The position numbers and the translations under genes were made by a program. Positions 35,404 through 37,078 of a stretch of DNA of 37,078 bases are shown piece by piece; within the stretch, counting starts at the first letter, position 1; every line of letters starts with the position of its first letter. Source of the stretch: Deltaproteobacteria bacterium. Its GTDB lineage: Bacteria; Desulfobacterota; G020345765. A model generated the notes under the pieces. The model was not told where the DNA came from. It did not search any database and saw only the letters and a list, made by a program, of their open reading frames with translations. The DNA is taken from the NCBI GenBank assembly GCA_020345765.1, contig CP070770.1, forward strand, positions 2,189,397 through 2,226,474. Reading direction: 5' to 3'.

Positions 35404-35446
35404 AGATAAAAACGGGCGCTGTGGGGCTGTTGAAAAAATATCTTTC

Positions 35447-35466
35447 CTCCCCCTTTGATGGGGGAG
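35447..35466. repeat. GC-rich hairpin at the left edge of the IS element
   Basis: CTCCCCC, loop TTTGAT, GGGGGAG: a perfect 7-bp stem of a kind often seen as a dispersed repeat in bacterial genomes. The right arm and the following bases (GGGGGAGCTT) recur inside the non-coding 3' end of the element at 36910-36919. It may be the target into which the IS110-family element inserted. Confidence 0.55.
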
Positions 35467-35577
35467 CTTGCTATAATACAGAAAGTAGTAGGTACTTATA
35501 AAAAAGGCTATACTCTTTCTTGGTTTGAACAAGTTAGTAAGTTGGTTAAAGTTCAAACAACAGAAAGGAGCATAGCC

Positions 35578-36840
35578 ATGGAAAAGATTCAAACAAAAAA
35601 GAGCGAAATAGTCAATAGTAAAACACTTATTGCCACAGTTGATCTTGGTAAAGCAACGAATACGGGGTACTGGCGATGTCCCGATGGAACAGATGTTAAG
35701 CCATTTACATTTTTCAATAATGGCTGGGGATTTAATGAATTCTGGAGTCGTATCGATAAGACCATGAAGGCGCATAATCTGGAAGAGGTAGTGGTGGGAT
35801 TTGAGTCCACCGGGTCTTATGGGGAGCCCCTTATCCATTATCTGAGAAAGAGACAGGTTAAGCTTGTGCAGGTAAATCCCATGCATACCAAGAAACTCAA
35901 GGAGCTTCAGGGAAACTCCCCCAGCAAGACTGATACAAAGGATCCCCGGGTGATTGCTGACATTATTCAGCTTGGTCATGCCCTGAGCCTGGTTATTCCT
36001 ATAGGAATCCCGGCCCAGTTGCGTAGATTGGTCCATGCTCGGGAAAGAAGTACGCAGAGGCGGACGGTCCTTTTGAATCAGCTTCAGGATCTTGTCTTTC
36101 TCCTTTTCCCTGAGTTTTTGCAGGTTATGAAGGGTGTAAAGAGTAGGAGTGCACAATATCTTTTGAGATACCATCCCAGGCCGCAGGATATTGTTAAGCA
36201 TGGGTGGGAGCCTTTGGCACTTAACTTGAAGAGGATAAGTCGAGGACGACTGGGTGACCAGCGGGCTCAGGCCCTTTACGAGAGTGCCCGAAGCTCTGTG
36301 GGCCTTAAGGAGGGACAGGAGAGTATTCTTTTTGAGATCAGGAACATACTGGCCTTTGTGGAGGCCTCTGATTGCTTTATTGCCGAGGTTGAAAAGGAGA
36401 TGCGCGATTATCTTAGGCAGATTCCCTACAGCAAGTTTATTATTTCTTTGAAAGGGATTGGAGAGATTACCACAGCGGGTCTTATTGGTGAGGTGGGTGA
36501 TTTCCGTCAGTTTAAAACCGTTTCCGAGATTACCAAACTGGCTGGTTTGGACCTTTTTGAGATCAGTTCCGGAAAACATAAAGGGCAACGGCATATCTCT
36601 AAAAGGGGGCGTCCCCTGATGAGGAAGCTTTTGTTTTTTGCCGCTATCAATGTGGTTCGTAAGGGTGGGATTTTTCATGAGCCGTATCAGAGGTATCTGC
36701 AGAGGGGGATGGAGAAAATGAAAGCCCTGATTGTCATAGCCAAAAAGCTGCTGCGTGTTATTTATGCTCTGGTACGGGATCATAGTAATTATGTATCTGG
36801 TTATTCAAAAACAGAGTTATATTTAAAGGAAGTCGCTTAA
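35578..36840 (+). CDS. IS110-family transposase (bridge-RNA-guided recombinase type)
   Basis: A 420-residue DEDD transposase. The N-terminal RuvC-like domain has ATVDLGKATNTGYW, VVGFESTGSYGEPLIHYLR and KTDTKDPRVIADI, supplying the acidic residues. The C-terminal Transposase_20 domain has LKGIGEITTAGLIGEVGDF and the catalytic serine region RHISKRGRPLMRKLLF. The start at 35578 has GAAAGGAG nine bases upstream; an in-frame extension to 35455 would run through the left-end hairpin and is rejected. The frame is intact with no stop, so the element may be active. The large open frame on the opposite strand is a shadow. Confidence 0.95.
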   Translation: MEKIQTKKSEIVNSKTLIATVDLGKATNTGYWRCPDGTDVKPFTFFNNGWGFNEFWSRIDKTMKAHNLEEVVVGFESTGSYGEPLIHYLRKRQVKLVQVNPMHTKKLKELQGNSPSKTDTKDPRVIADIIQLGHALSLVIPIGIPAQLRRLVHARERSTQRRTVLLNQLQDLVFLLFPEFLQVMKGVKSRSAQYLLRYHPRPQDIVKHGWEPLALNLKRISRGRLGDQRAQALYESARSSVGLKEGQESILFEIRNILAFVEASDCFIAEVEKEMRDYLRQIPYSKFIISLKGIGEITTAGLIGEVGDFRQFKTVSEITKLAGLDLFEISSGKHKGQRHISKRGRPLMRKLLFFAAINVVRKGGIFHEPYQRYLQRGMEKMKALIVIAKKLLRVIYALVRDHSNYVSGYSKTELYLKEVA

Positions 36841-36844
36841 ACTT

Positions 36845-37021
36845 TAATCTTAGTGTGTAAGTGGGGAGATTATCACTTATATCCATCAAGGCGACTTTGT
36901 CGACCTTCAGGGGGAGCTTTTATAACTCCCCACTTACACCTTAGCCCCGATTAAGCAAGGTTAGGGCTCTGTTGAGACCCTCTAATTACCAGGGTTGGGC
37001 AAGGTGTCACACTTAAGATTA
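36845..37021 (+). ncRNA. Candidate bridge RNA in the right end of the IS110 element
   Basis: About 177 bases just after the transposase stop fold into two successive internal-loop hairpins within a closing stem. The closing stem is TAATCTTA (36845-36852) with TAAGATTA (37014-37021). Hairpin 1 has a perfect 14-bp stem 36855-36868/36926-36939 and a tip stem 36888-36895/36899-36907 around an internal loop. Hairpin 2 has outer stem 36940-36947/36997-37003 with one bulge and inner stem 36963-36969/36974-36981. Two guide-type loops are the hallmark of IS110 bridge RNAs, which pair with target and donor DNA. Loop 1 contains GGGGGAGCTT, identical to the left-edge hairpin. Strand and exact ends are inferred. 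Confidence 0.6.
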
Positions 37022-37078
37022 GTAATCATCTGTGAAAAATTTATTAATATCTCTTTTAAAAAAATATAAAAAAAGACT
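37022..37078. other. AT-rich flank after the IS element
   Basis: The last 57 bases are strongly AT-rich with A-runs and hold no supportable gene. They may be chromosomal flank or the outermost part of the IS right end. Confidence 0.4.

What the first reader, a model, noticed from the sequence alone, without database searches (positions are those of the whole stretch)
36845..37021. Bridge-RNA-like fold after the IS110 transposase, with a loop matching the left edge
The right non-coding end folds into two internal-loop hairpins inside a closing stem, as expected for an IS110/IS1111 bridge RNA. Loop 1 contains GGGGGAGCTT at 36910-36919, which is identical to the hairpin arm at the left edge of the element (35460-35469). 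That is what a guide matching target or donor DNA would look like. The transposase frame is intact.
Basis: partly seen in the sequence, partly recalled or inferred. Interest (0 to 1): 0.62.

Follow-up and report, generated by a model that had tools for sequence, protein, structure and literature searches.

The report
Guide RNA of an IS1111-type transposon
A small mobile DNA element in an uncultured bacterium carries, right after its transposase gene, a folded guide RNA whose loops spell out both the DNA it inserts into (a repeat present in about 30 copies in this genome) and its own ends; this is a well-supported new example of the bridge-RNA/seekRNA system described in 2024, not a new kind of system.

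Summary
The window holds an IS1111-type element of the IS110 family (transposase 35578-36840) followed by a bridge RNA/seekRNA (about 36844-37022). In 21 homologous elements the fold is kept by covariation: 97.7% of cells paired, 25 of 36 pairs with changes on both sides, 0/500 shuffles. Loop 1 carries two target guides. Its 3' strand matches each element's left flank (77/96 bases; shuffled mean 33; 0/100,000). Its 5' strand is the reverse complement of each right flank (110/144; shuffled mean 56; 0/100,000). Loop 2 carries two donor guides that change together with the element ends. The GGGGGAGCTT match is a target match: five guide bases plus an AG core; the final CTT does not covary. The left flank is a dispersed host repeat. 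The 17-nt target read off the RNA (GGGGGAGGATATAAGTG) has only eight near-matches in 3.4 Mb; at least six are copies of that repeat. The circular RE-LE junction forms a sigma-70-like promoter in relatives. The window stops at an assembly gap just inside the right end, so this copy's right flank could not be read. New member of a known kind.

The parts
35423..35466 (+). Left flank: interrupted copy of a dispersed, MITE/REP-like repeat of the host genome; the insertion target
   Evidence: 11-12 further matches to this stretch in the genome, which continue as GATGGGGGAGGATAAAGGTGGGGGTGAAC where the element interrupts the window copy; 34 matches to the target motif, 0 in the reversed control.
35460..35466 (+). 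Left target half GGGGG plus AG core dinucleotide at the insertion point
   Evidence: Matches loop-1 3' strand 36910-36916; register set by the elements with readable left flanks.
35467..35577 (+). Left end of the element: CTTGCTA extension, sub-terminal inverted repeat from 35474, -10 box TATAAT at 35472-35477
   Evidence: Conserved in relatives; promoter half shown by RE-LE junctions.
35578..36840 (+). IS110-family RNA-guided transposase/recombinase, 420 aa; DEDD = D22, E76, D119, D122; Tnp-domain serine S331
   Evidence: PF01548 E=1.7e-21 and PF02371 E=3.2e-21; NF033542 198 bits, cut-off 140; aligns with the IS621 structure 8wt6.
36844..37022 (+). Bridge RNA (long seekRNA): closing stem 36844-36857/37008-37021 around a target-binding and a donor-binding hairpin
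36859..36935 (+). Target-binding hairpin (loop 1), outer stem 36859-36868/36926-36935
   Evidence: Helices 1-3: 98.8-99.3% of cells paired, 14 of 20 pairs with changes on both sides.
36875..36884 (+). Target guide for the right flank (top-strand complement): ACTTATATC + core C; predicts right target GATATAAGT
   Evidence: In 18 relatives the aligned segment matches the reverse complement of the right flank, 110/144 bases. Prediction agrees 8/10 with the host repeat's GATAAAGGTG.
36910..36916 (+). Target guide for the left flank (bottom-strand complement): GGGGG + core AG
   Evidence: Identical to 35460-35466; the aligned segment matches the left flank across 16 elements, 77/96 bases.
36954..36959 (+). 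Donor guide for the left end: AGCAAG, reverse complement of CTTGCT (35467-35472)
   Evidence: Covaries with the LE in L064 (AGCTCG with CGAGCT) and L066 (AGCACG with CGTGCT).
36988..36992 (+). Donor guide for the right end: ACC + core AG; predicts right end ...AACCAG
   Evidence: Three-state agreement with the RE (ACCAG, ACAAG, ACTAG) in all 19 relatives where both are readable.
37023..37078 (+). Start of the right end of the element; its last bases and the right flank fall in a 100-N assembly gap
   Evidence: window end is followed by 100 N; relatives show CTTGACTNNAATAAACCAG some distance downstream of the RNA.

Best explanation
This is an IS1111-group insertion sequence of the IS110 family with a bridge RNA (seekRNA) encoded in its long right end. 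Inferred mechanism, by homology to IS621 and ISEc11: the excised circular element joins its ends, which creates a sigma-70-like promoter across the RE-AG-LE junction. Transcription yields the transposase and the RNA. The RNA binds the DEDD/serine recombinase; loop 1 pairs with both strands of the target and loop 2 with the RE-LE donor junction, and recombination takes place at an AG (CT on the other strand) core. Shown here by sequence: the fold, all four guide/DNA relations across the family, the junction promoter in relatives, and insertion of this copy into a host dispersed repeat that its guides specify. Inferred: expression, RNA-protein binding, catalysis, and that this copy is still active.
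For: Intact DEDD + Transposase_20 protein. Conserved, covarying fold in 21 elements from several phyla. Left-flank guide 77/96 matches against a shuffled mean of 33.1, 0/100,000 (unique guides 59/72 against 24.5, 0/100,000). Right-flank guide 110/144 against 55.9, 0/100,000 (unique guides 93/120 against 45.3, 0/100,000). Donor guides covary with LE and RE. The 17-nt target predicted from the RNA finds 8 sites in 3.4 Mb at up to 2 mismatches, 0 in the reversed control, at least six of them copies of the repeat that forms the element's left flank. Relatives' targets are also repeats in their own genomes. Junction promoter TTGACW-N17-TATATT in 11 of 15 relatives with both ends, near misses in the other 4. 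Downstream RNA and guide order as published for IS1111 (PMC11187229, PMC11208160).
Against: The window copy's own right end and right flank are lost in an assembly gap, so its right-flank guide and right donor guide are tested only by prediction and in relatives. The last readable bases read AAAGACT where relatives have CTTGACT. It is the only copy in its genome, so recent movement is not shown. A few relatives match poorly (L072 left 3/6; L066, L068, L070, L071 right 5/8). No Rfam family reaches its threshold here. No expression data.
Confidence: 0.95

Rival explanations
1. The structure is an ordinary 3' UTR hairpin or transcription terminator and the GGGGGAGCTT match is chance, helped by G-richness.
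For: G-rich repeats are common in this genome, and the loop match was picked out by eye from one copy.
Against: The same loop position matches unrelated, non-G-rich flanks in relatives (TATA, AGAAA, CACTA, CGCAA, GTTAC, ACTTC), 0/100,000 shuffles. The other loop strand matches the other flank. The fold covaries.
Confidence: 0.02
2. The RNA is a genuine bridge RNA but this copy is a dead remnant: its right end was lost and the RNA no longer acts.
For: Single copy; right end not seen; last bases AAAGACT instead of CTTGACT.
Against: Transposase frame intact with DEDD and serine; RNA fold intact, z about -5; guides still fit the flank. The break is a 100-N gap, and several relatives' records also stop at or close to the element's target-side edge (L065, L074, L075), as expected when the target is a repeat.
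Confidence: 0.15
3. It belongs to another RNA-guided system built on the same domain, such as TIGR-Tas.
For: Weak match to NF052498 TIGR_Tas_endo, 46.6 bits against a cut-off of 100.
Against: Far better match to NF033542 IS110 RNA-guided transposase (198.4 bits, cut-off 140). The element has ends, donor guides and a single two-loop RNA; only one copy of the RNA stretch exists in the genome.
Confidence: 0.01

Closest known systems
IS1111-group insertion sequences with seekRNA (ISEc11, ISPa11, ISKpn4; PMC11187229)
   Same: Long non-coding region downstream of tnp; RNA with the top-strand complement preceding the bottom-strand match; sub-terminal inverted repeats with a 7-bp left extension; targets in folded or repeated DNA (ISPa11 in REP).
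   Different: Transposase 420 aa against about 340; inverted repeats imperfect (about 8 of 12) and right extension 4 bp (AACC) rather than 3; diverged sequence from uncultured bacteria.
IS621 bridge RNA (IS110 group; PMC11208160, PMC11208158)
   Same: DEDD RuvC + Tnp domain with catalytic serine; two-loop RNA with two target and two donor guides; CT core (AG on the strand read here); RE-LE junction promoter; insertion into dispersed repeats.
   Different: RNA lies in the RE after tnp, not in the LE; guide order along the RNA reversed relative to the element; here 5 nt + core and about 8 nt + core, against the 9-base LTG and 4-base RTG used for IS621-type analysis.
IS elements that target REP sequences (Tobes and Pareja 2006, cited in PMC11208160)
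   Same: Insertion into a dispersed extragenic repeat.
   Different: Here the repeat looks like a MITE with GGGGCTGTTGAAAAA terminal inverted repeats, and the guides that specify it can be read directly.

Membership tests
IS110 family (IS110 + IS1111) | DEDD RuvC domain plus Tnp (PF02371) domain with catalytic serine | tested here: met
   PF01548, PF02371, NF033542 above cut-off; S331 aligns with IS621 S241 and D119/D122 with D102/D105; D22 and E76 lie in the matching motifs.
IS110 family (IS110 + IS1111) | Structured RNA in the non-coding end with target- and donor-matching loops | tested here: met
IS1111 group | Long non-coding region downstream of tnp (RE), short LE | tested here: met
   LE 111 bp; RE more than 238 bp; same layout in relatives.
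IS1111 group | Sub-terminal inverted repeats of 7-17 bp | tested here: met
   In relatives: mean 8.1/12 in a fixed register against 3.7 shuffled; L070 9/9 (TATTGTAGT). Imperfect in most; not testable in the window copy (right end missing).
IS1111 group | Guide order: top-strand complement precedes bottom-strand match in the RNA | tested here: met
   Loop-1 5' strand complements the top strand at the right flank; 3' strand complements the bottom strand at the left flank; order as in PMC11187229.
IS1111 group | Position in a phylogeny of transposases with the reference IS1111 members | not tested
   No reference IS1111 transposases were aligned. The motif GL-P----SG of PMC11187229 reads GLDLFEISSG here (P replaced by L).
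Bridge RNA / seekRNA | RNA expressed, bound by the transposase and needed for movement | not testable with these tools
   Needs RNA sequencing and transposition assays.

The most novel reading that the evidence does not exclude
A clade of IS1111-type elements spread over Desulfobacterota, Nitrospirota, Brocadiaceae and other uncultured groups whose guides are naturally rewritten again and again to follow the dispersed repeats or MITEs of each new host, giving a ready-made panel of naturally reprogrammed RNA-guided recombinases with a longer right-flank guide than IS621.
Probability: 0.55. Interest if true: 0.45.

Novelty: new member of a known kind. Interest (0 to 1): 0.36.

Why it matters
Bridge RNAs were described in 2024, and most examples rest on structure prediction. 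Here the guide assignments, including the donor guides, are fixed by nature's own swaps: 12 different left-flank guides and 15 different right-flank guides each fit their own insertion site. That gives a checked register (5 nt + AG core + about 8 nt) for an uncultured IS1111 clade. It also explains the insertion site as a repeat the genome offers in about 30 copies, and gives a transferable test for calling bridge RNAs from genomes alone.

Tried and rejected
Rfam (gathering and E-value modes) gives nothing usable for the RNA. Single-sequence searches of genome contigs and viral contigs found no relatives; the two-sequence alignment found 24 in genome contigs and only a distant one in viral contigs. 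Plasmid hits are all under 40% identical among those listed and were not used. The first run of the guide statistics mis-set the core position for guides that contain an earlier AG; corrected. The reading that all 10 letters of GGGGGAGCTT are a guide was rejected: CTT does not covary. TIGR-Tas was considered and rejected. The two most distant relatives (L077, L078, 35-37% identical) carry a different 3' region and were left out of the RNA alignment.

Full report
Observation. The stretch 36841-37030 folds at -69.4 kcal/mol, z = -4.97, with no shuffle of 200 as stable: a closing stem around two hairpins, each with an internal loop. GGGGGAGCTT stands at 35460 and 36910 and nowhere else in the window on either strand. 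The gene between is an intact 420-aa IS110-family transposase with D22, E76, D119, D122 and S331 in the places of the IS621 catalytic residues (and reading of motifs; residues from PMC11208158).

Context. The sequence left of the element (35423-35466) is not part of it. It is one half of a dispersed repeat with at least 11 other matches found by DNA similarity and 34 matches to its target motif (at most 3 mismatches, none in the reversed control). Uninterrupted copies read GATGGGGGAGGATAAAGGTGGGGGTGAAC, and one complete copy is bounded by GGGGCTGTTGAAAAA inverted repeats (L015), like a MITE. In the window the repeat is broken after GGGGGAG. The window ends at a 100-N gap, so the last bases of the element and its right flank are missing.

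Relatives. A two-sequence profile found 24 relatives in GTDB genomes, mostly 50-67% identical, in Desulfobacterota, Nitrospirota, Brocadiaceae, Bipolaricaulota and others. All those at 50% or more with enough sequence carry a homologous RNA directly after the gene. On an alignment of 21 the consensus fold has 36 pairs; 97.7% of cells pair (86.9% in shuffles), 25 pairs have changes on both sides, and no shuffle of 500 reaches the paired percentage, the both-sided counts or the covariation score; sliding the partners by one column drops pairing to 42-47%. The outer closing stem, outside that consensus, forms in most single-sequence folds but is weak or absent in L060 and the L067-L069/L073/L076 group.

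Target guides. In each element the 6 nt before a fixed AG on the 3' strand of loop 1 were compared with the 6 nt before the AG at its left boundary: 77 of 96 letters match against 33.1 on average and 63 at most when flanks are dealt out at random (0/100,000). With one element per distinct guide: 59/72 against 24.5, 0/100,000. The outermost letter rarely matches, so the guide is 5 nt plus AG. On the 5' strand of loop 1 the 8 nt before the core C match the reverse complement of the right flank in 110 of 144 letters against 55.9 (0/100,000); unique guides 93/120 against 45.3 (0/100,000). Relatedness inflates such tests, but the guides differ even among close relatives. For the window the 5' strand predicts the right flank GATATAAGT(G); the host repeat has GATAAAGGTG there (8/10). 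The whole 17-nt prediction GGGGGAGGATATAAGTG has 8 sites at up to 2 mismatches in 3.4 Mb and none in the reversed control. Six coincide with repeat copies read, a seventh (657936) lies in a visibly related repeat (L083), and the eighth was not read out; all eight fit GGGGGAGGAWAWAGGTG.

Donor guides. The 5' strand of loop 2 carries AGCAAG, the reverse complement of the LE start CTTGCT. Where the LE changes, the loop follows: AGCTCG with CGAGCT in L064, AGCACG with CGTGCT in L066. The 3' strand carries ACCAG, ACAAG or ACTAG in step with the RE end AACCAG, AACAAG or AACTAG in every relative where both are readable; these represent few independent changes, being clumped by clade. The window's AGCAAG fits its own LE; its RE is unread.

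Other anatomy. Joining RE and LE of the same element, with AG between, gives TTGACT or TTGACA, 17 nt, TATATT in 11 of 15 relatives with both ends readable; L058 (TTTACT, TATAGT), L066 (TTGATC) and L072 and L076 (spacer 18) deviate slightly. The window has TATAAT at 35472-35477. Such a junction promoter is described for IS621 (PMC11208160, PMC11208158). Sub-terminal inverted repeats are present but imperfect (mean 8.1/12 against 3.7 shuffled), with a 7-bp left extension as in IS1111 elements (PMC11187229) and 4 bp rather than 3 on the right if AG is counted as core.

Targets of the relatives. Their targets are also repeated in their own genomes. CGCAAAGACGCAAAG-like sites occur 176, 43, 23 and 51 times in the genomes of L062, L063, L065 and L070, against 9, 0, 8 and 5 in the reversed control, and the exact joined site of L070 (CGCAGAGACGCAAAG) exists empty in its genome at G102:C312:7797. 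GGGGAGAGGGTTAGGGTGAGG-like sites occur 48 and 20 times in those of L061 and L075, controls 0 and 5.

Classification. The downstream position of the RNA, the guide order (top-strand complement first), and the sub-terminal inverted repeats put it in the IS1111 group as defined in PMC11187229 and PMC11208160; no phylogeny with reference IS1111 transposases was made. Verdict: the finding is right. It is a new member of a known kind, with unusually clear natural evidence for all four guides in its family. What is not shown: expression, binding, activity, and this copy's own right end.

Noticed in passing
window 35423-35466; L015-L025, L083: Dispersed MITE-like repeat of the host genome: G-rich hairpins CCTCCCCCTTTGATGGGGGAGG and, in L015, terminal inverted repeats GGGGCTGTTGAAAAA...TTTTTCAACAGCCCC; about 30 copies of its target motif. 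No source transposase was sought.
   Followed up: partly
window 37078 (G000:C1:2226475-2226574): The window ends at a 100-N scaffold gap inside the element's right end. Records of L065, L074 and L075 likewise begin at or within about 10 bp of the element's left boundary, so these repeat-targeting elements seem to break assemblies.
   Followed up: partly
L063, L071, L074 downstream of the RNA: Between the bridge RNA and the right end these three carry a conserved long inverted repeat (GCAGAAAAATTATCATGTGC...GCACATGATAATTTTCTGC); L059, L072 and L080 carry a different hairpin-like stretch (GGCTAACTCCA...CGTTAGCC). Possible terminators or passenger sequence.
   Followed up: no
L061 left boundary (locus about 2380-2395): The left flank reads GGGGAG where its guide and the empty repeat in that genome (GGGGAGAGGGCAAGGGTGAGG) have GGGGAGAG: an apparent 2-bp slip at the insertion boundary.
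   Followed up: no
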